Below are positions 2,722-28,518 of a DNA stretch of 64,000 nt, piece by piece. Source of the stretch: Frankia alni ACN14a (lineage in GTDB: Bacteria > Actinomycetota > Actinomycetes > Frankiales > Frankiaceae); NCBI RefSeq assembly GCF_000058485.1, contig NC_008278.1:6008962-6072961 (forward strand), read 5' to 3'. A program made the translations under genes and the position numbers. Within the stretch, counting starts at the first letter, position 1. Each line of letters begins with the position of its first letter. Under the pieces are notes generated by a model that was not told where the DNA came from, did not search any database, and was given only the letters and a program-made list of their open reading frames with translations.

Positions 2722-3195
2722 ATGGAGCAGCCGGCCGAGGCGTCGATCTTTCTGAGCTGGTGTCATGGCGACCTCGCCGCCAAGGAGGCACTGCTCAGCC
2801 ATCTGCACCTGGGCACCCTGGCCGGGGTGCGGATCGCCTGGTGGGAGGACTCGCACCTGCTGCTGGGCGCGGACTGGCGGCGGCAGATCCTGGCCCGGCT
2901 GGCCGCGTGCGACTACGGGTTGTTGCTGCTGAGCCCCGGGTTCTTCGCCAGCCGTTTCATCCTGGACGAGGAGCTGCCCCGCCTGCTCGGCCCGGACGCC
3001 GACAAGGTGCTGCCGGTGATGCTGAAGCGGGTGCCACTCGACGGCTCACGGGACCTGCACGGCCTGGACACGCGGCAGATCTTCACCGGCTCCGGGGGGC
3101 GCTGCTTCACCGAGACCCGCGGAGCCGGCCGGGAGCGGTTCGCCCTGGATCTGACGACAGCGATCCGTCACCGCGTGCTGAGCGACGCGGCCTGA
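2722..3195 (+). CDS. Stand-alone TIR domain protein, probable effector
   Basis: The 157-residue protein is essentially one TIR domain: ASIFLSWCHGD at residues 7-17 (strand A and AA loop), VRIAWWED (BB region), a GADWRRQI helix, YGLLLLSPGFFASRF (strand D), and a DEELPRL acidic helix where NAD-cleaving TIR domains keep their glutamate. The family is known for NAD(P) cleavage or cyclic-ADP-ribose signalling in antiphage systems. It ends in TGATG, its stop sharing a base with the ATG of the NACHT/WD40 gene, so the two are translationally coupled. I infer that the NACHT protein is sensor and switch and this is the separable effector. RBS AAGGAGG lies about 9 bases before the start. Confidence 0.8.
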   Translation: MEQPAEASIFLSWCHGDLAAKEALLSHLHLGTLAGVRIAWWEDSHLLLGADWRRQILARLAACDYGLLLLSPGFFASRFILDEELPRLLGPDADKVLPVMLKRVPLDGSRDLHGLDTRQIFTGSGGRCFTETRGAGRERFALDLTTAIRHRVLSDAA

Positions 3196-6100
3196 TGCGG
3201 CGACTCCCCCGCCGGGCGGTGCTGCGGCACCTCGACCGGCTCACCGACGACCTCACCCCCCGGCAGATGTCCCGGCTGCGGGGGCTGGCCGACCTGATCG
3301 GCGACGACGACCGCATCCCGATGCCACAGGCGTTGGACGTGGCCACCCCCGGCGGGGGCGATGTGAAGGCGCAGGACACCTTCCGCAAGTTCCGCGCCGC
3401 CCTCGACGACGCGGCGAAATCGGCCAAGGTCGACCTGCGGCTGGTCAGCGACCGGCGCAAGGCCCCGCCCACCGACCGGTTCTGCTGGTTCGAAGGCGCC
3501 GACGTCACCGTTGAAGAGATTGCCGAGCGTTCCGAGCGAGAGGCGGACCGTCGGACCGTCGACGAGCTCGTGCCGGCATCGGTGGCCGAGGTACTCCAGC
3601 CGGTCGTCCACGTCGAGACGGCTCCGCAGGCCTCCGAGGCGATTCGCGGTCTGGAGCGTCAGTTCGTGGAGCTGCTGATCGAGCAGGCCGCCGCCAGCTA
3701 CCGGATCACCAGCCCGTTCGACCTTCGGCTTGGCGTCGACATCGTGGCCGAGCGGCAACGGTTGCGGGAGGCGGCCGAGGTGGTCGTGGAACTCGACAGC
3801 GCCGCCGCCCGCCTTCACGACCTCCCGGGCACGACCATCCGCCGTCCGCTCAGGTTCGCCCTGGAGGGCGTGCCGCCGATCGTGCCCGCCACCGAAGGCG
3901 CTCCGCTCCTCACCGACCGGCCGTTCAGTGAGTGCCAGGACCGCACCGCCAAGCTGCGTTTCGTCCGAGTGGTACTGGGGCTCGTCGATGATCGGCTCCG
4001 GACCGGCCAGATCGGGCCCGGCCCGGAGCTGCCGGCGCGGGCCCGCCCCGAGCCGGCGGCAGCGGACCGGGCCGACCCCCACGCGTGGGACGGCTCCGCT
4101 CAGGTGTCCCTCGCCTTGACGATGATGAGCCGGCGCCCGCTGGACGTGAAGCCGGTGCCTCCCATGGCCGGTGAGACCTCACTCGCCGAGCGAACCCCCG
4201 GGGCACCGGCGCCGCGGCAGCTCGGCGAACCGACGCCGGCGGTGGACCGGCTGTTGGCGTGGGCTCTCGACGAGTCGCCGTCCGCCCGCTACCTGTGCGC
4301 GCTACTCGGTGACGTCGGGATGGGCAAGACCACGACCGCCAAGCTGTTCACCGAGGCGCTCTTGGACCGCCGCAGGCAGGACGCCGCGGTGCCGCTGCCG
4401 ATCCTGTTCGACCTGCGGGACCTGCCGTTGACGGTGGCGCGGGCAGGTGAGGGCCTGCCGAAGATCGTGCAGGCGCTGCTGGACGCCGGCAGCCGCGGCG
4501 CGGGCCCGTCGGCCGAGCAGGTGCTGGACCTGGTGGCCGCGGGCGACTGCGTCCTGATCTTCGACGGGCTGGACGAGGTCCTGGTGCACCTGGAGCCGCA
4601 CCCCGGCCAGGTGTTCACCCGCACGCTGTGGCGTGCCGCCGAGGACACCTGGCAGTCCCGGACCGCCGGCCGGCGGGGAACCCGGCCGAGCCGACTGCTG
4701 TTGTCCTGCCGGACCCACTACTTCCGCACCATCAAGGACGAGACCAACCACTTCACCGGCCAGCACCGCGACGGTCCGGCCGGCGCCGACTACCTGGCCC
4801 TGCTCATGCTGCCGTTCAGCGAGGAGCAGATCCGCGCCTACCTCGCGGCGAACGTGCCCGGAGGCGACGCCGACCGGCTGCTGGAGCTGCTCGACAGCGT
4901 GCACAACCTGCGGGAGATCGCCGAGCGACCGCTGACCCTGCGGATGGTCGCCGAGCAGCTGGAGACGGTGGAGCAGGCGAAGCTCGAAGGCCGCACCGTG
5001 CGCGCGGTCGACCTGTACGCGTCGTTCGTCGAGCAGTGGCTGGACCGGGACGAGGGCAAGCACTCGCTACTGCCGGAGCACAAGCAGCTGCTGATGGAGG
5101 GCCTCGCCGCCCGGCTGTGGCGATCCGGCCGGGCGACGTGGCAGGTGAACGAGGTCGAGCAGTGGATGCTGACGTTCCTCGCCGGCCGCCCCGACCTGGA
5201 AATGCACTACGCGCAGAGAGCCCCCGCCTTGTGGAAGGAGGACCTGCGCACGGCGACGTTCCTGGTCCGCCGCAACGACGACACGTTCGGTTTCGCGCAC
5301 ACGTCGCTGCGCGAGTACTTTCTCGCCCGCCACCTCGCCCGGGCCCTGGAGCTTCCGGCGGAGCAGGCGCGGGCCGCCTGGCAGCTGCCGGTACCGAGCC
5401 CCGAGACGCTTGATTTCCTGGGCCAGTGGCTGGCGGGCCGCGAGGAGACGCAGCGCGCGGGATGCACGGCCGCGCTGGCGTCCCTGGCCACGCACGTCCC
5501 CGGCGGACGGGCCGACGCGGCGGCGGTGCTGGCCTTCGCATACTGCCTGGCGGCAGGCCGCGGCGGCCACCCGAGCCACCCCCCGGCCAGGTCCGTCCTG
5601 ACCGGGGCCGACCTGACCGGTTGGCGGATCGACGGGGGCGACCGGCGGCTCGACCTGCACGGGGTGTCGCTGGCGGAGGCCACCCTGACCAACGCCGTGG
5701 TGTCCGACGCGGACCTGACCCGGGCCGACCTGTCCGGTGCGGACCTGACCCGGGCCGAGATCCACGACAGTGCGCTCAACGGCGCCGATCTCCGCCGCGC
5801 CACCCTCGCGGGAACGGTGTTCCGCACCTGCGACCTGACCGGCGTCCACTGGGCCGGCGCCCGCGCCTACGCCACCCAGGCGCTGCTGTGCCACCCGGCC
5901 GACGACACCCGCGGCGAAGGCTGGCTCGTGGCGCCGACCGCGTCCACGCGCCCACCCGGCTTCCGGCTGTCGTCCTTCACCGGCCACTCCGCCGCGCTGA
6001 CCGGCGGCGCGTGGAGCCCCGACAACACCCGCATCCTCACCACCAGCGGGGACGGCACCGCCCGGATCTGGGACGCCACCACCGGACACCACCAGCTCAC

Positions 6101-7931
6101 CCTCACCGGCCACAGCGACTGGGTGACCGGCGGCGCGTGGAGCCCCGACAACACCCGCATCCTCACCACCAGCACCGACGGCACCGCCCGGATCTGGGAT
6201 TCCACCACCGGACACCACCAGCTCACCCTCACCGGCCACACCGACTGGGTGACCGGCGGCGCGTGGAGCCCCGACAACACCCGCATCCTCACCACCAGCG
6301 ACGACCGCACCGCGCGGATCTGGGACACCACCACCGGACACCACCAGCTCACCCTCACCGGCCACACCAGCTTGTTGACCGGCGGGGCGTGGAGCCCCGA
6401 CAACACCCGCATCCTCACCACCAGCGACGACCGCACCGCGCGGATCTGGGACACCACCACCGGACACCACCAGCTCACCCTCACCGGCCACACCAGCTTG
6501 TTGACCGGCGGGGCGTGGAGCCCCGACAACACCCGCATCCTCACCACCAGCGACGACCGCACCGCGCGGATCTGGGACACCACCACCGGACACCACCAGC
6601 TCACCCTCACCGGCCACACCAGCTTGTTGACCGGCGGCGCGTGGAGCCCCGACAACACCCGCATCCTCACCACCAGCACCGACGGCACCGCGCGGATCTG
6701 GGATTCCACCACCGGACACCACCAGCTCACCCTCACCGGCCACACCGACTGGGTGACCGGCGGCGCGTGGAGCCCCGACAACACCCGCATCCTCACCACC
6801 AGCACCGACGGCACCGCGCGGATCTGGGATTCCACCACCGGACACCACCAGCTCACCCTCACCGGCCACACCGACTGGGTGACCGGCGGCGCGTGGAGCC
6901 CCGACAACACCCGCATCCTCACCACCAGCACCGACGGCACCGCGCGGACCTGGGATTCCACCACCGGACACCACCAGCTCACCCTCACCGGCCACACCGA
7001 CGCGCTGACCGGCGGGGCGTGGAGCCCCGACAACACCCGCATCCTCACCACCAGCGACGACGGCACCGCGCGGATCTGGGACACCACCACCGGACACCAC
7101 CAGCACACCCTCCCCGGCCACACCGACACGGCGACCGGCGGGGCGTGGAGCCCCGACAACACCCGCATCCTCACCACCAGCACCGACGGCACCGCGCGGA
7201 TCTGGGACGCCACCACCGGACACCACCAGCACACCCTCACCGGCCACACCGACACGGCGACCGGCGGGGCGTGGAGCCCCGACAACACCCGCATCCTCAC
7301 CACCAGCACCGACGGCACCGCGCGGATCTGGGACGCCACCACCGGACACCACCAGCTCACCCTCACCGGCCACACCGACACGGCGACCGGCGGGGCGTGG
7401 AGCCCCGACAACACCCGCATCCTCACCACCAGCACCGACGGCACCGCGCGGATCTGGGACGCCACCACCGGACACCACCAGCACACCCTCACCGGCCACA
7501 CCGACACGGCGACCGGCGGGGCGTGGAGCCCCGACAACACCCGCATCCTCACCACCAGCCGGGACGGCACCGCTCGGACCTGGGACGCCACCACCGGACA
7601 CCACCTGCACACCCTCACCGGCCACAGCAACTGGGTGACCGGCGGCGCGTGGAGCCCCGACAACACCCGCATCCTCACCACCAGCCGGGACCACACTGTC
7701 CGGATCTGGGACGCCACCACCGGCCGGGCGGTCGGCTGGCGGCTCGAACAGCTCCCGGACGGCGAGCTGGCGCTCTGGTCGGCCGACGGGGATGAACTGC
7801 GTGGCGCCTCCGAGGGCTCATGGAGGTGGCTGGGTTGGCTGGTGCCGCGCGGCGACCAGCTGGTCCGGTTGCCCGCCGAGACCTGGGGCCCGCTTCCACC
7901 GCTGTATCGGTCAGCCGCTCCGATGCCCTGA
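3195..7931 (+). CDS. NACHT STAND ATPase with pentapeptide repeats and 14 WD40 repeats
   Basis: This 1578-residue protein is a STAND-type switch. Residues 1-75 form a helical head (PRRAVLRHLDRLTDDL) like an adaptor or effector-associated domain. A NACHT module follows, with Walker A GDVGMGKTT near residue 372 and Walker B LIFDGLDE near 453. Next come a helical winged region with HTSLREYFLARHLA, A(D/N)L-type pentapeptide repeats near 815-905, and 14 WD40 repeats of 42 residues (930-1517), then a 60-residue tail. Fourteen blades fit two seven-bladed propellers. In known STAND defence proteins the repeat part senses the trigger and the NTPase oligomerises. No enzymatic domain is obvious here; the TIR protein encoded just upstream probably supplies it. 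ATG at 3195 overlaps the TIR stop; the upstream extension of the frame has no homology. Confidence 0.88.
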   Translation: MRRLPRRAVLRHLDRLTDDLTPRQMSRLRGLADLIGDDDRIPMPQALDVATPGGGDVKAQDTFRKFRAALDDAAKSAKVDLRLVSDRRKAPPTDRFCWFEGADVTVEEIAERSEREADRRTVDELVPASVAEVLQPVVHVETAPQASEAIRGLERQFVELLIEQAAASYRITSPFDLRLGVDIVAERQRLREAAEVVVELDSAAARLHDLPGTTIRRPLRFALEGVPPIVPATEGAPLLTDRPFSECQDRTAKLRFVRVVLGLVDDRLRTGQIGPGPELPARARPEPAAADRADPHAWDGSAQVSLALTMMSRRPLDVKPVPPMAGETSLAERTPGAPAPRQLGEPTPAVDRLLAWALDESPSARYLCALLGDVGMGKTTTAKLFTEALLDRRRQDAAVPLPILFDLRDLPLTVARAGEGLPKIVQALLDAGSRGAGPSAEQVLDLVAAGDCVLIFDGLDEVLVHLEPHPGQVFTRTLWRAAEDTWQSRTAGRRGTRPSRLLLSCRTHYFRTIKDETNHFTGQHRDGPAGADYLALLMLPFSEEQIRAYLAANVPGGDADRLLELLDSVHNLREIAERPLTLRMVAEQLETVEQAKLEGRTVRAVDLYASFVEQWLDRDEGKHSLLPEHKQLLMEGLAARLWRSGRATWQVNEVEQWMLTFLAGRPDLEMHYAQRAPALWKEDLRTATFLVRRNDDTFGFAHTSLREYFLARHLARALELPAEQARAAWQLPVPSPETLDFLGQWLAGREETQRAGCTAALASLATHVPGGRADAAAVLAFAYCLAAGRGGHPSHPPARSVLTGADLTGWRIDGGDRRLDLHGVSLAEATLTNAVVSDADLTRADLSGADLTRAEIHDSALNGADLRRATLAGTVFRTCDLTGVHWAGARAYATQALLCHPADDTRGEGWLVAPTASTRPPGFRLSSFTGHSAALTGGAWSPDNTRILTTSGDGTARIWDATTGHHQLTLTGHSDWVTGGAWSPDNTRILTTSTDGTARIWDSTTGHHQLTLTGHTDWVTGGAWSPDNTRILTTSDDRTARIWDTTTGHHQLTLTGHTSLLTGGAWSPDNTRILTTSDDRTARIWDTTTGHHQLTLTGHTSLLTGGAWSPDNTRILTTSDDRTARIWDTTTGHHQLTLTGHTSLLTGGAWSPDNTRILTTSTDGTARIWDSTTGHHQLTLTGHTDWVTGGAWSPDNTRILTTSTDGTARIWDSTTGHHQLTLTGHTDWVTGGAWSPDNTRILTTSTDGTARTWDSTTGHHQLTLTGHTDALTGGAWSPDNTRILTTSDDGTARIWDTTTGHHQHTLPGHTDTATGGAWSPDNTRILTTSTDGTARIWDATTGHHQHTLTGHTDTATGGAWSPDNTRILTTSTDGTARIWDATTGHHQLTLTGHTDTATGGAWSPDNTRILTTSTDGTARIWDATTGHHQHTLTGHTDTATGGAWSPDNTRILTTSRDGTARTWDATTGHHLHTLTGHSNWVTGGAWSPDNTRILTTSRDHTVRIWDATTGRAVGWRLEQLPDGELALWSADGDELRGASEGSWRWLGWLVPRGDQLVRLPAETWGPLPPLYRSAAPMP
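5982..7745 (+). repeat. Tandem 126-bp repeat, 14 copies, encoding WD40 blades
   Basis: Fourteen head-to-tail 126-bp units encode GH(S/T)xxxTGGAWSPDNTR-type blades. Long stretches such as GGAGCCCCGACAACACCCG recur in every copy, silent codon positions included. Most differences fall at the loop residues after GH, at S(G/T/D/R)D(G/R/H)TAR, and at WD(A/S/T)TTG. Near-identity at silent positions implies recent amplification or gene conversion. The copy number could also be hard to assemble correctly. Confidence 0.97.
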
Positions 7932-7973
7932 CCCTCCGCCATCACGAAGGTCGGACCGGCAAGGATGAGATCC

Positions 7974-8546
7974 ATGGCGCAGACACGGCTTCTCCTGATC
8001 TCGGGCAGCACCCGCGGCGCGTCGACGAACACCGCCGCGCTGCGTACCGCCGCCGCGCTGGCGCCCGCCGGGGTAACGGCCGTCCTCTACGACGGGCTGG
8101 CGGAGCTGCCGGCGTTCACCCCGGACGCCGACGACTCCGCTCCGCCGCCTGCGGTCGCCGCGTTGCGGGCGCAGCTCGCGGCGGCCGACGCGGTGCTGTT
8201 CTGCACCCCGGAGTACGCGGGCGCGCTGCCCGGCAGCCTGAAGAACCTGCTCGACTGGACGGTCGGCACCGGCGATCTCTACGGCAAGCCCGCCGCCTGG
8301 ATCAACGTCGCCGCCCCGGGCCGCGGCCTCGGCGCCCTGGCGGAGCTCACCACCGTGCTGGGCTACGTCACCGCCGAGATGATCGAGCCGGCATGCGTGG
8401 CGATCCCCGTGGCCCGCGACGCCGTCGCCGCCGACGGAACGGTGTCCGACGAGGCCGTCCGGGCCGCGCTCGGCGCCACGGTGCAGGCAATCACCGACCA
8501 TCTTTCGGCACGGAACTCCGCTCCCCAGGACGCCACGCCAGGCTGA
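7974..8546 (+). CDS. NADPH-dependent FMN reductase family protein
   Basis: A 190-residue flavodoxin-fold protein. LLISGSTRGASTN at residues 6-18 is the FMN phosphate-binding loop, and FCTPEYAGALPGSLKNLLDW in the middle is the flavin-contacting signature (F/TPEYN-type, with A for N) of the NADPH-dependent FMN reductase/azoreductase family. The usual length is about 180-190. ATG at 7974 is preferred because AAGGA sits at 7961-7965; an in-frame ATG at 7965 is overlapped by that site. It follows the WD40 gene by 42 bp but shows no functional tie to it. The electron acceptor cannot be read from sequence. Confidence 0.85.
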   Translation: MAQTRLLLISGSTRGASTNTAALRTAAALAPAGVTAVLYDGLAELPAFTPDADDSAPPPAVAALRAQLAAADAVLFCTPEYAGALPGSLKNLLDWTVGTGDLYGKPAAWINVAAPGRGLGALAELTTVLGYVTAEMIEPACVAIPVARDAVAADGTVSDEAVRAALGATVQAITDHLSARNSAPQDATPG

Positions 8547-8714: not shown

Positions 8715-9584
8715 GTGGCCGAGTTCGACAACCCGCGCCCGGCCGACGAGCTCGGCGGGGGTGCCCGGGCGTCCCGACCCGACGCGGGTCAACCCGCCGC
8801 CGATACTCCCCCGCTCCAGTCCGACCGGCCCACTGCCACCCCGCGCGAGGGAGTCGAACGCAAGGCAGCGCTCCTCGACCGCCGCGCCACCGAGGCCCCC
8901 GCACACGACCGGCCCGCACCTGCCATCACCGCCGCCGAACGGAAGGCGGCGTTACTCGAAGCCCGCGCCGCCGGCGTGGACCGGCCCGCGCCCGACGAAT
9001 CCGCCAGGCCGTCCACCGACGCTCCCCGCGCCACCACCGACCCCGAACGCAAGGCCGCCCTCCTCGACAGCCGCGCCACCAGACGACTGCCAGACGGACC
9101 ACCTACCCGCCCCGCGGACGCACCCGCCCGGCCCGAGATCAGCGAGAAGGTGTTCCAGCACATCCTGCACGGCGAGTGGAACAGGCGCGGCCGCCCCGTC
9201 GGCTTCCACAGCGCCCCCGACGGCCATCCCCCACCCGACCGCCGCATCACCTCGGTGGAAGACCGGAAACCAGACGGCACCTACCATGCCGACGTCGAGT
9301 TTCGCCATCCGACCACCGGAGAGTGGAGGAGGAAGGACGTTCCGGAGCACACCATGTTCCCGAACCAGTGGCCGGAACAGAAGGTGCGCGATGCGGTGCA
9401 AACAACCTACGAGAAGATCTACGATGACGTCATCGAGCCGCGACTGAGAAACAACGAAGAAATTCCCAAGAAGGCACTGCGAGACAGGTACGACGGTGTG
9501 CTGATACAGCTCTATGTAAGCCCAAGTGGAGAACTCAGGACTGCATTCCCGATCCAGAAGTCCGACCCTGGGGAGCATCGATGA
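8715..9584 (+). CDS. EndoU-type nuclease toxin with ERKAALL repeats
   Basis: The 289-residue protein has two parts. Residues 1-140 are proline/alanine-rich and contain three copies of ERKAALL(D/E)xRA spaced about 30 residues apart. Residues 145-285 look like the bacterial EndoU RNase module of polymorphic toxins: EKVFQHILHGEW, then PVGFHSAPDG, which would give the two active-site histidines, then a conserved DVEFRHP and a C-terminal YDGVLIQLY strand. No signal peptide, WXG100, PAAR or other trafficking domain is visible. The stop overlaps the next gene by 4 bp, the usual toxin-immunity arrangement. It starts with GTG. The EndoU call is from motif pattern and could be challenged by a profile search. 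Confidence 0.68.
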   Translation: MAEFDNPRPADELGGGARASRPDAGQPAADTPPLQSDRPTATPREGVERKAALLDRRATEAPAHDRPAPAITAAERKAALLEARAAGVDRPAPDESARPSTDAPRATTDPERKAALLDSRATRRLPDGPPTRPADAPARPEISEKVFQHILHGEWNRRGRPVGFHSAPDGHPPPDRRITSVEDRKPDGTYHADVEFRHPTTGEWRRKDVPEHTMFPNQWPEQKVRDAVQTTYEKIYDDVIEPRLRNNEEIPKKALRDRYDGVLIQLYVSPSGELRTAFPIQKSDPGEHR

Positions 9585-11047: not shown

Positions 11048-12733
11048 GTGGCCACCAGCCCCCAGCGAACGACCGTCTTCGATTTCGCCCCCCAGGACCG
11101 ATCCCTGCTCGACGCCCAGAACCGGGCGTTGGAGAACCTGGACCGCGGTGACTTCCGGGAGCTTCCGCCCGCGACCGCCGGCAAGTTCCAGCAACTCCAG
11201 GGCGCCGGAACGTTCGCGTCCGTCCGCATTCCCGGCGCGGACCCGGACGTCCAGCTCGACGCCGGCGTGTTCGTCCCGCTCGGTGCCGGTCAGCACCCGG
11301 TCGTCGTCCTACCCGCGCCGCTGGCCCCCACCGGGTGGCGCTCCTACCCCGGGCTGCTCGTGAACTTCGCGATCCGGGGCTATCTGGCCGTCGCGTACAG
11401 CGAGCGAGGACTGGCCGACTCCACCGGGAAGATCGACGTGGCCGGGCCGCGGGACCGGGCGGACGGTTCCGCCGTCATCGACTGGGTCCTGGAGAACCAC
11501 GCCGACCGGGTGAACCCGGATCAGATCGCGTTCGCCGGGTCGTCCTACGGCGCCGGCCAGAGCCTGATCATCGCCGCGCACGACGACCGGGTGAAGGCCG
11601 TCGCCGCGCAGAGCGCGTGGGCGGATCTCACCCGCTCGCTGTACGAGAACGAGACCCGGCACATCGCGGCCTTCGAGGCCCTCGCGGCGCTGTTCGGCGA
11701 GGATCGGCTCTCCGACGAGACGCGGCAGATCTTCGAGGATTTCCGCGCCAACAAGAACATCAAGAACCTGATCGACTTCGGCGCCATCCGCTCGCCGATC
11801 AGCTACGTCGAGCGGCTGAACTCCCGGCAGGTGCCGGTCTTCCTCGGGACCTACTGGCACGAGACGATCTTCTCCGTGCCGGCCGTCGTCGAGTTCTTCA
11901 ACGAGCTCAGGGGCCCGCGCCGGCTGCTGGTGCAGATCGGCGACCACGGCGGCGACGAGATCCTGGGCTTCCTCGGCGGCTGGAGCCGGCCGACCGCGAC
12001 GACCTTCCGCTGGCTGGACCATCACCTCCAGGGCAAGGACAACGGCGTCGGCCAGGACGGCAACGTCCACACCGAGTACATGCACAACCTGTTCGACCTG
12101 CGGAAGTCCAACGACTGGCAGTCGTACGTCCAGCCGACCCGGCGGTTCTACCTCGACCAGCCGCGGGGCGGCGCCACCGACGGCGTCCTGGCGTCCCGGC
12201 CGGCCACCGGGTGGACGACGACCATCCAAGCGGGTGTCGACACTCCCGCGCACGTCGCCGAAGCGCTCGTCCAGACCGGCGTCCTGGAGCGGCTCGGCGC
12301 CCCCGCGATCTACGACACGGCGTCGATCTCGCGGCGGGACGCGGCCGTCTGGGTCACCGAGCCGCTGGTCGCGCAGAGCCAGCTCACCGGGAACGTCCGG
12401 CTGCACCTGACGGTCCGCCCGTCCGCGGCGACGGCGACGATCGTGACCCACCTGTTCGACGTCGACCCGGGCCGCGCCAAGGGCAAGATCATCACCAGTG
12501 CGCCGTACACGCTGCTCAACGACCGCGAGGGCGAGGCCCGCGCGATCGACGTCCAACTTCAGCCCGCGGACTACCGCATCCCCGCCGGCCACCAGCTCGC
12601 CCTCGTGATCGACACGAAGGACCGGCTCTTCGCCGACGCCACCGTCGACGGCAGCCAGGTCGAGATCGCCTCCCCGGACGGCGCCGCCTCCTACCTGGAG
12701 CTCCCGCTCGCCGACCTCCCCGACGCGGACTAG
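11048..12733 (+). CDS. CocE/NonD-type alpha/beta hydrolase
   Basis: The 561-residue protein matches the Xaa-Pro dipeptidyl-peptidase S15/CocE architecture. The N-terminal half is an alpha/beta-hydrolase with nucleophile elbow GSSYGAG near residue 165 and a YSERGLADSTG segment before it. The C-terminal half (QLTGNVRLHLTV, HLFDVDPG, PADYRIPAGHQLALVID) is the jelly-roll X-Pro C-terminal domain. Asp and His of the triad probably lie around 290-310 (IGDHGGDE). The substrate, an ester or a peptide, cannot be deduced. There is no signal peptide, so it is probably cytoplasmic. GTG start; AAGGAG lies about 10 bases upstream. Confidence 0.85.
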   Translation: MATSPQRTTVFDFAPQDRSLLDAQNRALENLDRGDFRELPPATAGKFQQLQGAGTFASVRIPGADPDVQLDAGVFVPLGAGQHPVVVLPAPLAPTGWRSYPGLLVNFAIRGYLAVAYSERGLADSTGKIDVAGPRDRADGSAVIDWVLENHADRVNPDQIAFAGSSYGAGQSLIIAAHDDRVKAVAAQSAWADLTRSLYENETRHIAAFEALAALFGEDRLSDETRQIFEDFRANKNIKNLIDFGAIRSPISYVERLNSRQVPVFLGTYWHETIFSVPAVVEFFNELRGPRRLLVQIGDHGGDEILGFLGGWSRPTATTFRWLDHHLQGKDNGVGQDGNVHTEYMHNLFDLRKSNDWQSYVQPTRRFYLDQPRGGATDGVLASRPATGWTTTIQAGVDTPAHVAEALVQTGVLERLGAPAIYDTASISRRDAAVWVTEPLVAQSQLTGNVRLHLTVRPSAATATIVTHLFDVDPGRAKGKIITSAPYTLLNDREGEARAIDVQLQPADYRIPAGHQLALVIDTKDRLFADATVDGSQVEIASPDGAASYLELPLADLPDAD

Positions 12734-21385: not shown

Positions 21386-22447
21386 ATGACCTACCTGGCA
21401 GGAAAGCTCGTGCTCGCGATCGAGGCCGGCGCCCCGAACAACGGCCGCAGCGACGCCACGACCGCGCGGGTGAAGAAGGCAAGAATCCACGGCCGGGACT
21501 ATCCCTACGTCTCCGCCCAGGCATTCCGCCGCTGGCTGCGGGACACGATGACGGCCGCCGGTTCGGTGCCGTCGCCGACCCAGCGAGTCGGCAAGGCCCA
21601 GCAGAAGGCGCAGAAGGCGACCACCGCCGCCAATCCCATCGAGTTCGCCGACGACGACCTGTTCGGCTATCTGAAGGCGACGTCGAAGTCGGACGACGAG
21701 TCCACCACGGTGCGCGACACCGCTTTCATGGTCGGCACGTTCCTGTCGGTGGAGCCGGTCCGCCTCACCGAGGACTTCGGCGTGATGTCGCGGAACATTC
21801 CCGAACCGGTCCTGCACGCGCACGAATTCTACACCGCCGACCTGGCCGCCCCCTTTCTGCTCGACATTCCACGGGTCGGCACGTTCACCCTGCCGGACCG
21901 CACCGGCGCCGGCCGGCCGAACTACCTGACCGAAAAGGAGGCGCTGAGCCTCGCCGCCGCCGCGCAGGCCGGGGCGACGAGCACCCGGTTCCGCGGTCAC
22001 GGCGCGGTCCGGCTCCCGCTGGCGGAGCGTCGCAGGCGGGTCGCGCTGCTGCTGGAGGCACTCGCCGAGCTCGCCGGCGGGGCAAAGAAGGCGCTGCACT
22101 ACGGCGACCGGCTGCCGGCGCTGTTCGCCCTGGTCCCGATGGCCGGCGGGGTGAACCCGCTCGGGTTCGTCATCGACGGCAGCGAGGACGGCACGGGCCT
22201 GCAGGTCCGCGGCGACGTGCTGCGCCGCGAGCTGGCGGCCTGGGACGGCGAGTGGGAGGCGCCGGTGCGCGTCGGCTGGCGGCCGGGTTTCCGTGACACG
22301 CTGCGCAAGCAGTTCGAGGACGATCTCGCCGACGAGATCGACGCCGGGAAGGTCGTCGTCGGCCATCCCCGCACGGTGCTGCTCGACCTGGCCGGACGCA
22401 TCCGCGGCGGCGAGCACGACACCTGGTTTGACGACCGGACCCGATGA
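21386..22447 (+). CDS. cas7: Cascade backbone protein Cas7 (Cst2/DevR family)
   Basis: The 353-residue product follows the Cas7/DevR pattern: LAGKLVLAIEAGAPNNG at the start (first RRM strand), YVSAQAFRRWLRDTM, a lysine-rich insertion, VGTFLSVEPVRLTEDFG, and RFRGHGAVRLPL. These proteins form the helical filament along the crRNA. AGGA lies six bases before ATG. The stop precedes the Cas5-Cas3 start by 10 bp. A 40-residue basic segment (THR/KAQQKAQKA type) around residues 60-80 could be the thumb loop. Confidence 0.88.
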   Translation: MTYLAGKLVLAIEAGAPNNGRSDATTARVKKARIHGRDYPYVSAQAFRRWLRDTMTAAGSVPSPTQRVGKAQQKAQKATTAANPIEFADDDLFGYLKATSKSDDESTTVRDTAFMVGTFLSVEPVRLTEDFGVMSRNIPEPVLHAHEFYTADLAAPFLLDIPRVGTFTLPDRTGAGRPNYLTEKEALSLAAAAQAGATSTRFRGHGAVRLPLAERRRRVALLLEALAELAGGAKKALHYGDRLPALFALVPMAGGVNPLGFVIDGSEDGTGLQVRGDVLRRELAAWDGEWEAPVRVGWRPGFRDTLRKQFEDDLADEIDAGKVVVGHPRTVLLDLAGRIRGGEHDTWFDDRTR

Positions 22448-22457
22448 GACCCCGCGG

Positions 22458-25400
22458 ATGCAGGCCCTCCGTGCACGGTCGGCCCAGCAGGTGGACGGCG
22501 TGCCGGTGAGCGCCGCGGCCGGCTGGCGGCAGCCGTCAGAGGCCGTCGAAGCGCTGCGAGTGGAACTCGCCGTGCCGATCGCGTCGTTTCGCGACCCGAT
22601 GTTTCCCGGGGTGTCCCGCTGCCTGCCGGTTCCGCCGCCGTCCACCGTGCGCGGCATGCTCGCCGCGGCGACCGGACGGCCGAGTGAGACCGTCCCGCTC
22701 GGCCTCGCGGCGAGCGCCACGGCCAACGGCGTCGACCTGGAGACGTACCACCCGATCGCCGCCGACGGCTCCAACCCGGCCAGCGGCGGCCGGGTCGCCC
22801 CCGGCAAGGGCGGGATGACCATTCGTGAACGGCCGTTCCTCGCCGGCGTCCGGGTCACGCTGTGGATCCCCGGCGCGGCCGGCCGTCGAATCGAGGCGGC
22901 GCTGCGCCGGCCGGTGTGGGGGCTGCGACTCGGCCGCTCCCAGGACCTCGTGCACCTGGTCGGCGCGCCCCGCTGGACGGTGCTGCATCCGGCGGAGCGG
23001 GCCATGGTCGGCCACGCCGTCGCGCCCCCCGACGGGCATGCGGCGCCGCAGGCGGTGTCACTGCGGCTGGCCGTCGCCGTCAGCGCCGACCGGCTGAGCA
23101 CCGACTACCGCTCGTTCCTCTGGTGCGCCGACGCCGCCGGAACGCACGCCGTGCACGGCGCCTACCTCGACGGTCTCGACGGCCAGGCGGTCTGGCTGCT
23201 TGACGGTGACGCCGATGGTGACGCCGACGGTGACGCGGCCGCCGGCTCGGCCGCCGACGCAAGCGAACTCGACACGATCCTGGCCAAGTCGGCGGACCGG
23301 TCGGTCGACGACGAACCCGAACGGCTCACCGCGCACGCGCAGGCGGTGCGGGACGCGGCCCGTTCGATCGCCGCACGGATCGGACCGGCCGGTCCGATCG
23401 CCGACGAGCCGCGCTTTTGGGCATGGGTCGAGCAGGCCGCACTGCTCCATGACGCGGGCAAGGTCGCGGAGGGCTTCCAGCGGCAGATCCATCCCGGCGG
23501 CAGGCCGTGGAGCGAGCGGCACGAGGTGCTGTCCCTCGCCTATGTCGACCTGTTCCATCCGGAACCGCCAGCCGAGGCCGAGACGGCGACCGACGCCGGG
23601 GCGGCGACCGACCGGCTGATGACCGCGACCGGCGTCCTGTTCCATCATCGATCGCTGACGACAAGCGGCCTCGGCGGGAAAGAGCCGCTGGTGAGCCGGT
23701 ACTTCGAGGACGCGGACTGGGCCCGGTACTTCTGGCGCGGCACCCCCGACGACATCAGGGACGGCAAGCCGCGCCTGCAGATCCCGCGGCGACGCCACGC
23801 CGAGCTGCTCGCCTGGTTCGCCGACCGGCTCGACCTCGCCCCGGACCCGGCGGAGGGCCGCAGGCTGTGGGAGCGTGCCCGCGCGCTGTTCCTCGCCACC
23901 CGCGACCACTGGATCGACCCGGTTACCGACCGGGAGGGGCTGCTGGCCGTGCTCCTCCAGGGCGCGGTGACGCTCGCCGACCATGCCGGTTCGGCGCACG
24001 TCCCGCTCCAGACGCACATGCCGCTGCCCCGCCGCTATCTCGACCGGATTCCGGCACCGTACGACCATCAGCGGGCCGCGGCGGCCGTCGAGGGGCACCT
24101 GATCCTGCTGGCCCCGACGGGCAGCGGCAAGACCGAGGCCGGCCTGGCCTGGGCGTCCGCCCGGCTCGACGGGATGCCAGACCAGCCGCGGCTGGTCTGG
24201 ATGCTGCCCTACCGAGCCTCGATCGACGCCGCCGCCGACCGCTTTCGCGACGACCTCGTCCCGCCGCCCAACCACAACCTGCCACCCGTGCACGGCGAGC
24301 CACCGCCCGGCCCGGGTGAGCCGGATAGGCCGGACACGCCGGACAGGCCGGATATCGGCATTCTGCATGCGACGGCTGCGCGGACGCTGCTGGAGCGGGC
24401 GGTCGCCGAGGACTGCGCACCCCCGGCGGAGGCGGCGCTCAAAGCGCGGGCGCGAGTCGGGGCGATGCGCCTGTTCGCCCAGCGGGTGCGGGTCGCGACG
24501 CCGCACCAGCTCCTGCGGGCCGCGATCGCCGGGCCCCGCTACTCGTCCGTCCTGCTCGAACAGGCCAACTGCCTGATGGTCCTCGACGAGCTGCACGCCT
24601 ACGACCCGGTGACCTTCGGGCGGATCTGCGCGGCGATGCGGCTGTGGTCGCAGCTCGGCAGCCAGGTCGCGGTGCTGTCCGCGACCCTTTCCATGCCCAT
24701 GATCGAACTCGTTCAGGACAGCCTGGGCGGGACGGTCGAGGTGGTGCACGCCGCGCCGGGCACTGCTCCGGACCGGCATCGGCTTGTCCTCGCCGACGCG
24801 CCGATCACCGCCCCGGCCAGCCTCGACGCCGTCCGCCGCTGGCTGGCCGAGGGGCGTTCCGTCCTCGTCGTCGCCAACACCGTCCGCACCGCGCAGCAGC
24901 TCTACGCCGACCTCGCGCCCGCCGCCCGCGCCGCCGCGCCCGACGTCGACGGCCGGGATGCGGATGCGGATGCGGCGATCCTGCTGCACTCACGGTTCAG
25001 GGCACGGGACCGAGCGGCGATCGAACGGCGCATCCTCGCCCGTCACCCCGAACGGCAGCCAGGCGATCCGGCCCGACGGTCCGGCGGGCTCGTCGTCTCC
25101 ACGCAGGCGTTGGAGGTCTCGCTGTGCCTCGACTTCGACCGGGGGGCCAGCGAGCTGGCGCCGATCGAGGCTGTCGCGCAGCGGGCCGGCCGGGTGAACC
25201 GGCGCGGCCGGCATCCCGACGGCCCGGTCGAGTTCCGCGTCCACCCGGTCGAGAAGCACCTGCCTTACGAGGAGGAGGCGCTGGCCGCGGCCTGGTCGGC
25301 GCTGCGCTCCACCGCCGACACCGATCCGACGATCTCCGAGCAGACGGTCACGGCCTGGCTGGACCACGTCTACGCGACCGACTGGGGTCGGCGTTGGGCG

Positions 25401-25799
25401 GCGACCGCCCGCCAGCACCGCGACGCGTTCTCCACGAGCTTCCTGACCTTCCAACGCCCGTTCGACGACCGTTCGGAGTTCGCCCGGGGCCTCGCCGAGC
25501 AGTTCGACACCGTCCACGTCCTGCATCGCGACGACCTCCCCGAATACCGCGAGCTGGCCGACCGTGACCGCGGTGGCCCGCTGCTCGCCGAGGGGCTGCT
25601 CATCCCGATCGGCTTTCACCAGTACCTGCGGTTGGCGAAGGCGGGCCGCGCCGAGGTCCATCGCGGTCTCCGGCTGGCCACGGTCGACGCGCCGTATTCC
25701 GCGGAGACCGGCCTCGATCTGTCCGTTCTCGACGACGAGAACGCCCGGTTCGATGACCGTTCGGGGCATCGACCGGCCGACCTGGACACGATCCTGTGA
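22458..25799 (+). CDS. Cas5-Cas3 fusion protein
   Basis: This single open frame encodes 1113 residues. Residues about 30-245 are Cas5 (VELAVPIASFRDP, PPPSTVRGMLAAATG, VWGLRLGRSQDLV), the cap that holds the crRNA 5' tag. An acidic linker of GDAD units (about 248-262) follows. Then comes Cas3: ELDTILAKSAD at the usual Cas3 N-terminus, HD-nuclease motif LLHDAGK near 331, GVLFHHRS, Walker A APTGSGKT near 553, DELHAY near 711, SATLS, and QRAGRVNRRGRH of motif VI. Cas3 unwinds and degrades target DNA. No in-frame ATG or GTG precedes the Cas3 part at a sensible place, so it cannot easily be made alone. Start ATG 22458; the next in-frame candidates are GTG codons within 100 bp. Confidence 0.9.
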   Translation: MQALRARSAQQVDGVPVSAAAGWRQPSEAVEALRVELAVPIASFRDPMFPGVSRCLPVPPPSTVRGMLAAATGRPSETVPLGLAASATANGVDLETYHPIAADGSNPASGGRVAPGKGGMTIRERPFLAGVRVTLWIPGAAGRRIEAALRRPVWGLRLGRSQDLVHLVGAPRWTVLHPAERAMVGHAVAPPDGHAAPQAVSLRLAVAVSADRLSTDYRSFLWCADAAGTHAVHGAYLDGLDGQAVWLLDGDADGDADGDAAAGSAADASELDTILAKSADRSVDDEPERLTAHAQAVRDAARSIAARIGPAGPIADEPRFWAWVEQAALLHDAGKVAEGFQRQIHPGGRPWSERHEVLSLAYVDLFHPEPPAEAETATDAGAATDRLMTATGVLFHHRSLTTSGLGGKEPLVSRYFEDADWARYFWRGTPDDIRDGKPRLQIPRRRHAELLAWFADRLDLAPDPAEGRRLWERARALFLATRDHWIDPVTDREGLLAVLLQGAVTLADHAGSAHVPLQTHMPLPRRYLDRIPAPYDHQRAAAAVEGHLILLAPTGSGKTEAGLAWASARLDGMPDQPRLVWMLPYRASIDAAADRFRDDLVPPPNHNLPPVHGEPPPGPGEPDRPDTPDRPDIGILHATAARTLLERAVAEDCAPPAEAALKARARVGAMRLFAQRVRVATPHQLLRAAIAGPRYSSVLLEQANCLMVLDELHAYDPVTFGRICAAMRLWSQLGSQVAVLSATLSMPMIELVQDSLGGTVEVVHAAPGTAPDRHRLVLADAPITAPASLDAVRRWLAEGRSVLVVANTVRTAQQLYADLAPAARAAAPDVDGRDADADAAILLHSRFRARDRAAIERRILARHPERQPGDPARRSGGLVVSTQALEVSLCLDFDRGASELAPIEAVAQRAGRVNRRGRHPDGPVEFRVHPVEKHLPYEEEALAAAWSALRSTADTDPTISEQTVTAWLDHVYATDWGRRWAATARQHRDAFSTSFLTFQRPFDDRSEFARGLAEQFDTVHVLHRDDLPEYRELADRDRGGPLLAEGLLIPIGFHQYLRLAKAGRAEVHRGLRLATVDAPYSAETGLDLSVLDDENARFDDRSGHRPADLDTIL
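23199..23239 (+). repeat. 12-bp repeats coding the Cas5-Cas3 linker
   Basis: GGTGACGCCGAT-type units occur about three times in a row and encode the GDADGDAD linker. Because the unit is a multiple of three, copy changes alter linker length but not the frame. Confidence 0.75.
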
Positions 25800-26311
25800 G
25801 CACCCCGTATGACCCGACTGACGCCGGCTCGCCTGTCGGCGGCGTACACATCAAGTATCTGCTGCACTGCCCGCGGCAGCTCTGGCTGTACATGCGGGGC
25901 TATCGGCCGGAGGGTTCCAGCGATCTCGTCTCGTTCGGCGAGATCGTCGACGAGACGACGTTCACCCGTCGCCGCGACGTCGACCTCGGCGAAGCGAAGA
26001 TCGACTGGGTGACGACGGGTGCGGTCGTCCACGAGACGAAGTCGTCGCGGGCTCCGAGCCCGGCGCACGAGGCCCAGGTCCGGCACTACTGCCTGCTGCT
26101 GGAACGGCGCGGGATCAATGTGCGCAGCGGAGTCGTCCACTATCCGCTGATCCGCCGCACCGTCACCGTCGCCTGGGACGACGACGCGCGCCGCAGCGCC
26201 CTCGAAACCGAGACGCAGGCCCGCGCAGTGATATCCGCGCCGGCTGTTCCGCCCCGGCTGGAGCGCCGCCGCTGCCGGGGCTGTTCGTATACCGACTACT
26301 GCTGGGGATGA
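25796..26311 (+). CDS. cas4: CRISPR adaptation exonuclease Cas4
   Basis: The 171-residue product has the RecB-type nuclease and Fe-S layout of Cas4: VHIKYLLHCPRQLWLY with the first cluster cysteine, DLVSFGEIVDE, the HETKSS motif holding catalytic Glu and Lys, the QVRHYCLLLE helix, and CRGCSYTDYC at the C-terminus with the other three cysteines. Cas4 trims prespacers and helps choose the PAM and orientation. GTG overlaps the Cas5-Cas3 stop as GTGA. It ends two bases before cas1. Confidence 0.93.
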   Translation: MSTPYDPTDAGSPVGGVHIKYLLHCPRQLWLYMRGYRPEGSSDLVSFGEIVDETTFTRRRDVDLGEAKIDWVTTGAVVHETKSSRAPSPAHEAQVRHYCLLLERRGINVRSGVVHYPLIRRTVTVAWDDDARRSALETETQARAVISAPAVPPRLERRRCRGCSYTDYCWG

Positions 26312-26312
26312 G

Positions 26313-27293
26313 ATGCCCGCCGCCGGGAGAACCTACTGGCTGACTGAACCATGCCGCATTCGGCGGGAGGACAACAGCCTGCGGATCGAACGGGCTGACA
26401 GCACGCCCGTCCGCCTGCCCATCACCGATATCCGCGACCTGGTGACCTTCGACCACGTCGACATCAACACCGCCGCCGTGTCGCTGCTCGGCCGGCACGG
26501 CGTCGTCGTTCACATCCTCGATCACTACGGCAACTACGCCGGGGCCCTCATGCCGGCGGAGGACATGTCGTCCGCGCAGGTGGTGCGGGCGCAGGTCGAC
26601 CTGACCGCCGACCCCGTGCGACGGGCCGCCATCGCCCGCTCCCTGATCGCGGCGACCGCGGCGAACGTCCGCTGGGCGCTGGAGACCGACCTGCTCGACG
26701 GGCCGCTGGACGCGCTCGGCACGCGCCTCGCCGCCGCGGAGAGCAGCGAGGAACTGATGGGCGCCGAAGGCACTTTCCGGCGCTCCGCGTGGGGAGTGTT
26801 CGACACGATCCTGCCAGCCTGGCTCCGCCTGGACGGTCGTACTCGGCGACCGCCGACGAACGCGGGCAACGCCTTCATCAGCTACGCGAACAGCGTCGTC
26901 TACGGCCGGGTCCTCACCGCCCTGCGGGCCACTCCCCTGCATCCCGCGGTCGGTTTCCTCCACGCGGACACCGACCGCCGCCGCAACACCCTCGCCCTCG
27001 ACCTCGCCGAACCGTTCAAACCCCTGTTCGCCGAACGCCTGCTCCGCCGCGCCGCCGCTCAGAAGACGCTCCGCCCGTCCGACTTCGAGGCCGACGTGGG
27101 CGCGGCGTCGCTAAGCCGCGAGGGCCGGAAGAAGGTCTCGATGATGATGCGCGAAGAGCTCGCCGCCACCGTGTTCCACCGCACGCTGAAGCGAAAGGTG
27201 TCCTACGAGGAACTGATCCATCTGGAGGCGCTCAAGCTGGTGCGGCTCTGCCTGGAGGACACTCCGTACACGCCGTTTCGGCCCTGGTGGTAG
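26313..27293 (+). CDS. cas1: CRISPR integrase Cas1
   Basis: The 326-residue product is a full-length type I-B Cas1. The N-terminal beta domain (YWLTEPCRIRREDNSLRIER, ITDIRDLVTF) is followed by the helical catalytic domain with the metal ligands Glu near 152 (GAEGTFRR), His near 217 (GFLHADT) and Asp near 230 (ALDLAEPFK). The C-terminus is VRLCLEDTPYTPFRPWW-like. Cas1 with Cas2 inserts spacers at the leader end. All three ligands are present, so it should be active. Confidence 0.96.
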   Translation: MPAAGRTYWLTEPCRIRREDNSLRIERADSTPVRLPITDIRDLVTFDHVDINTAAVSLLGRHGVVVHILDHYGNYAGALMPAEDMSSAQVVRAQVDLTADPVRRAAIARSLIAATAANVRWALETDLLDGPLDALGTRLAAAESSEELMGAEGTFRRSAWGVFDTILPAWLRLDGRTRRPPTNAGNAFISYANSVVYGRVLTALRATPLHPAVGFLHADTDRRRNTLALDLAEPFKPLFAERLLRRAAAQKTLRPSDFEADVGAASLSREGRKKVSMMMREELAATVFHRTLKRKVSYEELIHLEALKLVRLCLEDTPYTPFRPWW

Positions 27294-27297
27294 CGGG

Positions 27298-27561
27298 ATG
27301 TTCGTCGTCCTCGTCTACGACACCGCAGCCGAGCGCAATCCGAACGCCCTGCGCACCTGCCGCAAGTACCTGCACTGGGTCCAACGCAGCGTCTTCGAGG
27401 GAGAGCTGTCCGCCGCCCAGTACCGCGCCCTGATGACCACGCTGCGCGACCAGCTCGACCTCACCTACGACAGCATCCGCGTCTACCGCACCCGCTCCCC
27501 CGCCCTCGTCGAAACCGAATGGCTAGGCGTCCCCCTGGGCAACCAGGACTCCGTCCTCTAG
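27298..27561 (+). CDS. cas2: CRISPR adaptation protein Cas2
   Basis: The 87-residue product is a complete Cas2: FVVLVYDTAAERN (first strand with the conserved Asp), the YLHWVQRSVFEGEL helix, and DSIRVYRTRSP. It bridges two Cas1 dimers. ATG lies four bases after the cas1 stop. The leader of the large array starts immediately after the stop. Confidence 0.96.
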   Translation: MFVVLVYDTAAERNPNALRTCRKYLHWVQRSVFEGELSAAQYRALMTTLRDQLDLTYDSIRVYRTRSPALVETEWLGVPLGNQDSVL

Positions 27562-27671
27562 CCAAGACGATCAAGGCTCTGACCAGCACAGTTACATCAC
27601 CGCCGGACCGCTGCAAGATCACCCCCTCACCCCCACCCCACCGCACCCCTGACCTGCACCTTTACCATGGG
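27562..27671 (+). promoter_or_regulatory. CRISPR leader copy 4, active-array leader
   Basis: This 110-bp region between cas2 and the first repeat is, in reverse complement, homologous to the leaders of arrays 1-3 (ACCTGCACCTTTACC beside the repeat, CCGGACCGCTGCAAGATCAC in the middle). Its orientation shows that array 4 is read rightward and grows next to cas2. Confidence 0.88.
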
Positions 27672-28289: not shown

Positions 28290-28518
28290 GCGGCCGCCGG
28301 ACGGCCATCGGAGGCCAAGCTCCGACCACCATCTCGACGACCTTGGTGTTCGGCAGCGCCGACCGCGGCCGATTTCGGTGCATCTGTGCGGTCTGGGCCC
28401 GCAGACTGTGCATTGCGTACCGCAGTGCGACCCCACCCCGGCGATCATGGTGTTCGGCGGAGCTGCACGCCACGGACTGCCTCCAAAGCCAAGTGCCTTC
28501 ACCCAAGGTCCAGCGATC
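28290..28518. other. No gene between array 4 and the palindrome
   Basis: No frame with homology is seen. The phrase TGGTGTTCGGC occurs twice, near 28342 and 28448. The stretch is probably decayed flanking DNA. Confidence 0.45.

What the first reader, a model, noticed from the sequence alone, without database searches (positions are those of the whole stretch)
5982..7745. Fourteen nearly identical WD40 repeats, variation focused on loop positions
The 126-bp units are nearly identical including silent positions, while differences cluster at the residues after GH, at the SxDxT turn and near WDxTTG. This suggests rapid repeat exchange that remodels the recognition surface, as proposed for highly variable WD40 repeats in bacterial conflict systems. 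Fourteen copies equal two seven-bladed propellers.
Basis: seen in the sequence. Interest (0 to 1): 0.75.

Follow-up and report, generated by a model that had tools for sequence, protein, structure and literature searches.

The report
Immune-like sensor with fourteen recombining blades
A Frankia gene pair looks like a bacterial immune alarm whose sensing end is built from fourteen almost identical blades that differ mainly at the few residues expected to touch a target; this is a clear new example of a design already known from cyanobacteria and fungi.

Summary
Window 5976-7739 holds 14 WD40 units of exactly 126 bp/42 aa (91% nt identity) in a 1578-aa gene (3195-7931): NNH6 helical domain, NACHT NTPase, pentapeptide repeats, 14 WD40 units. 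A TIR-domain gene (2722-3195) overlaps its start. The genome is one 7,497,934-bp contig; its length equals Frankia alni ACN14a (recalled).

Amino-acid variation is strongest at unit columns 5-8, 25, 27 and 34; all but 8 and 34 lie in the predicted top-face loops, including three of the four positions reported under positive selection in fungal HET-D/E. Orthologues, all with the TIR gene, were found in 12 other genomes. Assembly stops or gaps inside the array in 11 of the 12. The one other complete array also has 14 units, yet no unit-to-unit orthology: units resemble their own gene's units (53 of 58). The orthologous first unit also varies most at 25, 7 and 6. No reverse-transcriptase match was found, so retroelement-driven diversification is unlikely.

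Best reading: an NLR-like TIR/NACHT sensor, probably antiphage, with a double seven-bladed head shaped by intragenic recombination plus selection. Precedents: cyanobacterial WRAP and fungal HNWD. Change within a species, the ligand, the fold and the function are untested or unproven.

The parts
2722..3195 (+). TIR-domain gene, 157 aa, putative NAD-cleaving effector; its stop codon shares one base with the ATG of the next gene
   Evidence: Pfam TIR_2 34.9 bits, cut-off 28; weak PDB match to TIR protein 3h16, E 0.041, with Glu84 opposite the Glu of a KEL stretch; Glu84 invariant in the 9 sequences aligned, this one and 8 orthologues
3195..7931 (+). NACHT-WD40 sensor gene, 1578 aa, ATG at 3195
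   Evidence: orthologues
3207..3545 (+). NNH6, NACHT N-terminal helical domain 6 (aa 5-117)
   Evidence: Pfam PF22737, E 2.1e-34
4293..4844 (+). NACHT NTPase domain (aa 367-550), P-loop GDVGMGKTT
   Evidence: Pfam PF05729 29.5 bits, cut-off 26.7
5652..5846 (+). pentapeptide-repeat stretch before the WD40 array
   Evidence: Pfam PF00805 60.3 bits
5976..7739 (+). array of 14 WD40 units, 126 bp / 42 aa each
   Evidence: Pfam WD40 with 14 stretches
5976..6101 (+). unit 1, edge unit, keeps its place across species and was used for between-species comparison
7614..7739 (+). unit 14, divergent edge unit
7740..7928 (+). C-terminal tail, largely conserved in AiPs1
   Evidence: alignment A1

Best explanation
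The two genes form an NLR-like sensor and effector pair. The C-terminal WD40 array folds as two seven-bladed propellers whose top-face loops (columns 5-7 and 25/27) read out a protein partner, most likely a phage component or an infection-altered host protein. Binding would release the NACHT NTPase to oligomerise and activate the co-encoded TIR protein, which would deplete NAD and stop the infected cell. The array is kept homogeneous by unequal crossing-over or gene conversion through the invariant 39-bp core between the two variable loops, which shuffles loop combinations, while selection keeps differences at the contact positions and holds the number at 14. Shown by sequence: domain order, gene overlap, 14 units, homogenisation by gene, position of variation, conservation of the pair. 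Inferred: fold of the array, NADase activity, activation, phage as trigger, recombination as a present-day process, constraint on the number.
For: Domain set TIR / NNH6-NACHT-WD40. The TIR gene lies upstream in all 12 other genomes with an orthologue: 8 loci, G226 (45% identity), G007, G020 and G025. Of the 9 loci whose junction I looked at (window plus 8), 7 have the stop/start overlap; AgB32 and AgKG84 do not. 14 units here and in AiPs1, whose contig also carries parts of the flanking genes. Units group by gene: 53 of 58 have their nearest unit in their own gene only; 3 AiPs1 and 1 gtarii unit in another gene, 1 gtarii tie. No positional match between the two complete arrays (diagonal 0.1654, off-diagonal 0.1670, p 0.30). 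Mosaic units: 10 combinations (with column 34) from 7 and 6 loop types. In this array pN at the HET positions is 0.378 and at columns 5-7, 9, 25, 27 it is 0.344, against pS 0.074 over columns 1-37; 300 of 300 bootstraps pN(top) > pS. Top five columns more variable than random columns in 5 of 6 arrays. In the first unit of 13 genomes the most variable columns are 25, 7 and 6; alni and gtarii differ in columns 1-33 of that unit at 5 residues, all at 6, 7, 8, 25, 27. Precedents seen in passages: WRAP (PMC9218822) and HNWD (PMC1805685, PMC2873952, PMC12222747).
Against: No functional data. PADLOC gives no system-level hit for the sensor (only TRIP13, E 0.037). The TIR model is poor (pLDDT 44.5) and the array model mediocre (62.6), so two propellers are not proven. 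Column 9, one of the four HET positions, is invariant here. At top columns pN does not exceed pS in AiPs1 (0.312, 0.361) or G025 (0.211, 0.212) and only modestly in G020 (0.398, 0.261). In unit 1 of alni against gtarii pS (0.176) is above pN (0.090) over columns 1-33; in their bodies pS is 0.113 and pN 0.042. G025 shows no enrichment at the five top columns (p 0.25). The loop columns were chosen after seeing the data; reduce but do not remove this. No within-species comparison. There is no seven-unit rhythm in the array.
Confidence: 0.68

Rival explanations
1. Fresh amplification without diversifying function: each lineage's propeller was re-amplified from one blade, and the loop differences are neutral decay of a young repeat at tolerant sites.
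For: Independent amplification in close homologues is reported for WRAP (PMC9218822 passages). Silent divergence among units is low. Similarity falls off with distance along the array without deeper structure. In AiPs1 and G025 coding change at top columns does not exceed silent change.
Against: Differences are not scattered: top-face columns are enriched in 5 of 6 arrays and in the first unit across 13 genomes, and pN is about five times pS at those columns in this array. Bottom loops, also exposed, vary little (mean entropy 0.00 and 0.32 against 1.24 and 0.78 for the top loops).
Confidence: 0.17
2. Allorecognition or kin recognition: as in fungal HET-D/E, the array recognises a variable self protein of other Frankia filaments, not a phage.
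For: Frankia is filamentous (recalled). Architecture and variable positions resemble fungal HNWD genes, whose antagonist is a host protein (PMC1805685 and PMC2873952 passages).
Against: No partner gene known; hyphal fusion is not established for Frankia (recalled). Bacterial STAND/NACHT proteins tested so far protect against phages (stated in PMC10907252 passages).
Confidence: 0.08
3. Housekeeping or developmental signalling protein with a stable multivalent scaffold; repeat identity only reflects stability of consensus blades.
For: Highly repetitive WD40 proteins are reported to be of higher stability (PMC5587647 passages).
Against: The gene is patchy (8 of 13 Frankia genomes and 12 of 393 in the class sample, the window's own included) and loop residues differ between species with 92% identical bodies.
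Confidence: 0.05
4. Diversification by a diversity-generating retroelement, as in other NACHT sensors.
For: Such systems exist (PMC10907252 passages).
Against: 0 matches to RVT_1 in the whole genome, while the control search rings in 3 of 14 genomes; the variable codons are not limited to adenine positions.
Confidence: 0.02

Closest known systems
WRAP, Npun_R6612 of Nostoc punctiforme (PMC9218822 passages; that PDB 2ymu is this protein is recalled)
   Same: 14 near-identical WD40 blades at the C-terminus of a STAND NTPase, a TIR gene coupled to it, homologues amplified independently; 2ymu is the best PDB match (E 1.2e-114; Foldseek rank 1)
   Different: WRAP has 10 point mutations across 14 blades and no silent change, and its TIR sits on a second STAND protein; here the TIR is a small separate gene, the N-terminus is NNH6, and variation is focused on contact loops
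Fungal HNWD genes het-d / het-e / het-r (PMC1805685 passages and section 9, PMC2873952 and PMC12222747 passages)
   Same: NACHT with highly conserved tandem WD40 repeats, homogenisation within the gene, variation at unit codons 7, 25, 27 (and 9 in several relatives here), two seven-bladed propellers proposed for HET-E
   Different: the TIR-related HET effector is fused, not a separate gene; fungal units exchange between loci, whereas the unit core here occurs nowhere else in the genome at up to 3 mismatches (14 hits, all in this gene)
Highly-Repetitive prokaryotic WD40 proteins (PMC5587647 passages)
   Same: internal identity 0.857 by that paper's rule, above its 0.7 limit; most sites conserved, hotspot sites diverse
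   Different: a descriptive class without one function
Propellers of Frankia sp. EAN1pec (PMC4735018 passages)
   Same: a Frankia genome with many propellers of varied internal identity, compared with 2YMU
   Different: 11 propellers of five to seven motifs with 30-62% internal identity in another strain; used to argue for origin from single motifs, not for recognition
DGR-diversified NACHT sensors (PMC10907252 passages)
   Same: NACHT sensor with a hypervariable C-terminal recognition domain
   Different: no reverse transcriptase found here; recombination between repeats instead
Antiphage STAND NTPases, Avs and bacterial NACHT (mentioned in PMC10907252; details recalled)
   Same: STAND NTPase with C-terminal sensor
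   Different: no curated system model matched; weak hit to EruA only, 17.8 bits against a cut-off of 1000

Membership tests
Highly-Repetitive WD40 proteins (Hu 2017) | at least six of eight contiguous repeats pairwise at 0.7 identity or more | tested here: met
   0.857
WRAP-type STAND propellers | C-terminal 14 near-identical WD40 blades | tested here: met
WRAP-type STAND propellers | two separate seven-bladed propellers | tested here: inconclusive
   2ymu is the top structural match, but the model has pLDDT 62.6 and the alignment has rmsd 20.2 and TM 0.33/0.37
WRAP-type STAND propellers | coupled gene bearing TIR on a second STAND NTPase | tested here: not met
   the TIR gene here is 157 aa and only TIR_2 matches
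Fungal HNWD (HET-D/E) | fused HET effector domain | tested here: not met
   NNH6 at the N-terminus, no HET match in aa 1-800, separate TIR gene
Fungal HNWD (HET-D/E) | variation concentrated at unit codons 7, 9, 25, 27 | tested here: met
   permutation p 0.0001-0.024 in 6 of 6 arrays; but column 9 is invariant in F. alni and AgKG84 and column 27 in G025 and G020
Fungal HNWD (HET-D/E) | exchange of units between paralogous loci | tested here: not met
   unit core found only in this gene
NACHT STAND NTPases | NACHT domain with P-loop | tested here: met
   29.5 bits, cut-off 26.7
TIR NADase effectors | TIR domain with catalytic glutamate | tested here: inconclusive
   TIR_2 over cut-off; Glu84 invariant in 9 of 9 aligned; alignment to 3h16 weak, model poor
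TIR NADase effectors | NAD cleavage | not testable with these tools
   needs an assay
Antiphage STAND systems (Avs, bacterial NACHT) | match to a known system model | tested here: not met
   sensor: only TRIP13 at E 0.037; effector: ThsB-type TIR models, best E 8.5e-9
Antiphage STAND systems (Avs, bacterial NACHT) | protection against phage | not testable with these tools
   needs an assay
DGR-diversified sensors | reverse transcriptase in the genome | tested here: not met
   0 matches to RVT_1

The most novel reading that the evidence does not exclude
Frankia carries a bacterial counterpart of the fungal HET-D/E receptors: a TIR/NACHT receptor whose fourteen blades are reshuffled by recombination through an invariant core on a time scale short enough to give different recognition specificities among strains of one species, with the blade number pinned at two full propellers, and without any retroelement.
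Probability: 0.3. Interest if true: 0.75.

Novelty: new member of a known kind. Interest (0 to 1): 0.47.

Why it matters
If the reading holds, fungi and bacteria share, by descent or convergence, the same trick: a NACHT receptor with a double propeller, nearly identical blades, and change concentrated at the same unit positions. The body of the Frankia gene and its TIR partner are conserved across several species while the array turns over, so it offers a tractable case for asking whether repeat recombination gives bacterial immune sensors new specificities. It also warns that draft assemblies tend to lose precisely this part: 11 of 12 orthologous arrays are cut or gapped.

Tried and rejected
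Retroelement-driven diversification: no RVT_1 match in the genome. Duplication of a whole seven-blade block: identity at a shift of 7 units (0.820 aa) is not above its neighbours (0.848 at 6, 0.817 at 8). Exchange with paralogues in the same genome: the unit core occurs only here at up to 3 mismatches; other WD40 genes show only weaker DNA similarity. Positional orthology of units between F. alni and AiPs1: none. AlphaFold of the TIR protein was too poor to use (pLDDT 44.5). The array model (pLDDT 62.6) was used only for strand limits within a unit and a fold search. A second structural aligner was not available. A conserved chromosomal site: only partly so; FMN reductase was found in 5 of 11 loci tested and eutC in 3 of 11, and eutC was not found in the 6-7.5 kb upstream of the gene in QA3, PseudoMAG, AgB32, AgKG84 and CiP1. 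Transfer of the repeat domain between lineages: AgKG84 shares more silent codons with each of five other arrays than their bodies predict (p 0.0035 to 0.037, pairs not independent), while the other ten pairs do not (p 0.099 or more); left unexplained.

Rows dropped: QA3 unit 6 (frame change inside) from the unit statistics, except the internal-identity figure for QA3; AiPs1 units 2 and 6 (insertions) masked in part and dropped; the last unit of alni, AiPs1 and QA3 left out of the entropy tests; edge unit 1 left out of the consensus comparisons; the seventh unit of the TIR-WD40 paralogue is short and was left out of its pN/pS. AgB32, CpI1, CiP1 and G007 gave one or no full unit and G226 was not extracted, so none of these was in the nearest-neighbour count. 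The paralogue comparison used a motif rule that found four or more units in only 5 of 13 regions (mean identities 0.34 to 0.51 in four, 0.91 in one).

Full report
What is there. Window 5976-7739 contains 14 head-to-tail WD40 units of exactly 126 bp. They are the end of a 1578-aa protein (3195-7931) with an NNH6 domain, a NACHT NTPase and pentapeptide repeats in front. A 157-aa TIR gene lies directly upstream, its stop sharing one base with the start of the large gene (sequence). The window lies in a single-contig genome of 7,497,934 bp; the length equals that of Frankia alni ACN14a, from recall, and 7 of the 8 named relatives are titled Frankia.

The repeat. Mean pairwise identity is 91.0% (nt) and 85.2% (aa). 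All units share 39 bp without a change, codons 12-24. Over all pairs pS is 0.076 and pN 0.095. With columns fixed from the fungal literature (7, 9, 25, 27) pN is 0.378; over columns 5-7, 9, 25, 27 it is 0.344, against pS 0.066 there and 0.074 over columns 1-37. The register of the fungal codons was matched by the statement that codons 8 and 26 are conserved consensus positions (PMC1805685 section 9) and by recall of the fungal unit; column 26 is the invariant Asp here, while column 8 is L, V or A. In the model the strands of a unit cover about columns 8-13, 19-24, 29-33 and 39-42 plus 1, which puts columns 5-7 and 25-28 in the d-a and b-c loops; that these face the top is established knowledge of WD40 propellers. 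Bottom loops vary little: mean entropy 0.00 and 0.32, against 1.24 and 0.78 for the two top loops (units 1-13).

Mosaic structure. Seven d-a loop types and six b-c types occur in ten combinations, counting column 34 too; 58 of 153 pairs of informative sites show all four combinations of their two main alleles. Units 3-5 carry b-c loop DDR and units 4-6 carry d-a loop SLL, so the block 'DDR, then SLL of the next unit' occurs three times and the duplicated stretch runs from the middle of one unit to the middle of the next. Breaks thus fall in or near the invariant core (my inference). Neighbouring units share up to 251 identical bases.

Relatives. The body of the protein (aa 1-800) has orthologues in 7 of the 12 other genomes of the genus searched, 3 further ones in the family, one in another family at 46% identity (12 of 393 genomes in the class sample, the window's own included) and one Pseudonocardiales metagenome bin: 12 other genomes in all. 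The TIR gene was found in all 12. FMN reductase was found in 5 and eutC in 3 of 11 loci tested; QA3, PseudoMAG, AgB32, AgKG84 and CiP1 have 6-7.5 kb upstream of the gene without eutC, so the setting is shared only in part. Only AiPs1 has a complete array; nine loci end at a contig edge inside the array (gtarii, CpI1, PseudoMAG, AgKG84, CiP1, G007, G020, G025, G226) and two (QA3, AgB32) have an N gap in it. QA3 also shows a one-base frame change in the array, which may be real or an assembly error.

Number. AiPs1 has 14 units too, although unit 2 carries one extra residue and unit 6 three. Its contig includes part of eutC before and part of the FMN reductase after the array. The same genome as the window holds a second near-identical array: a TIR domain (TIR_2, 121 bits) in one frame with 7 WD40 units of 46 aa (138-bp period, 6.9 copies, 95% matches), with variation at columns 6, 7, 9 and 25. 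So 7 and 14 recur. The HET-E double propeller of 11 conserved and 3 cryptic blades also makes 14 (PMC12222747 passages). With two complete arrays, a constraint on the number remains an inference.

Turnover. Of 58 units from 8 genes, 53 have their nearest unit in their own gene only; the exceptions are 3 of 14 in AiPs1 and both of gtarii. Between F. alni and AiPs1, unit i is no closer to unit i than to others (0.1654 against 0.1670, p 0.30; inner units p 0.43). This fits repeated homogenisation or re-amplification in each lineage, as described for WRAP homologues (PMC9218822 passages). The two cannot be told apart with these data.

Same positions in other species. Entropy at columns 5, 6, 7, 25, 27 exceeds random columns in 5 of 6 arrays (p 0.0001 to 0.0053); G025 does not (p 0.25). 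The four HET positions are enriched in 6 of 6 (p 0.0001 to 0.024). The first unit, which keeps its place, was compared over columns 1-33 in 13 genomes, the window's own included: the most variable columns are 25, 7 and 6, and the five top columns are enriched with p 0.00016. F. alni and F. gtarii differ there at five residues, all in columns 6, 7, 8, 25 and 27, plus three silent codons. Results against: over those 33 columns pS (0.176) is above pN (0.090), as in the bodies (0.113 and 0.042), so this pair shows where change falls, not an excess of coding change. In AiPs1 (pN 0.312, pS 0.361), G025 (0.211, 0.212) and, less so, G020 (0.398, 0.261) amino-acid change at top columns does not stand clear of silent change there. 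The excess is clear in F. alni (0.344, 0.066) and the TIR-WD40 paralogue (0.302, 0.017), and moderate in QA3 (0.308, 0.145) and AgKG84 (0.309, 0.103).

Mechanism. The architecture is that of an NLR-like receptor: sensor head, NACHT switch, separate TIR effector. The TIR protein matches TIR_2 over its cut-off, ThsB-type models (best E 8.5e-9) and, weakly, the TIR structure 3h16 (E 0.041); Glu84 is invariant in the 9 sequences aligned. NAD cleavage, oligomerisation and phage as trigger are inferred from better-known relatives. The fold search ranks 2ymu first, though with rmsd 20.2 and TM 0.33/0.37, and the sequence search gives the same entry with E 1.2e-114; that this is the WRAP propeller is from recall. 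Four WRAP variants (7bie, 7big, 7bid, 7bif) are also near the top of that list.

Novelty. The parts and the behaviour are each known: highly repetitive WD40 with variable hotspots (PMC5587647 passages), 14-blade STAND/TIR loci (PMC9218822), and loop diversification with concerted evolution (PMC1805685). Propellers of another Frankia strain, EAN1pec, were used to study propeller origin (PMC4735018 passages). The searches listed no paper on this gene, but several lists were cut (15 of 19 shown, 20 of 459, 15 of 616), only open-licence papers are held, and I saw passages and one section, no whole text. I call it a new member of a known kind, with the focus of variation on HET-like positions in a bacterial TIR/NACHT pair as its most interesting trait.

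Noticed in passing
L069 6672-8651 (minus strand), genome C1 about 1883671-1885650: TIR domain fused to seven near-identical WD40 units of 46 aa in the same genome; variation at columns 6, 7, 9, 25
   Followed up: partly
L030 array (AgKG84); also L029 and L083 (AgB32): The AgKG84 array shares silent codons with the other arrays more than its diverged body predicts (26 of 29 against 19.7 expected with F. alni); possible transfer of the repeat domain between lineages
   Followed up: partly
window 22293-28290: CRISPR-Cas locus: one open frame with both Cas5 and Cas3 domains, then Cas4, Cas1 and a repeat array of about 65-67 bp period
   Followed up: no
window 8715-9584: open frame with a bacterial EndoU nuclease domain at its C-terminus, a possible toxin, a little downstream of the FMN reductase gene
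   Followed up: no
L026 about 11480-12036: QA3 array has a one-base frame change and an N gap; real defect or assembly error
   Followed up: partly
window 5067-8032, minus strand: two long open frames of 875 and 721 codons run antisense through the repeat array; probably a by-product of high G+C and a period divisible by three
   Followed up: no
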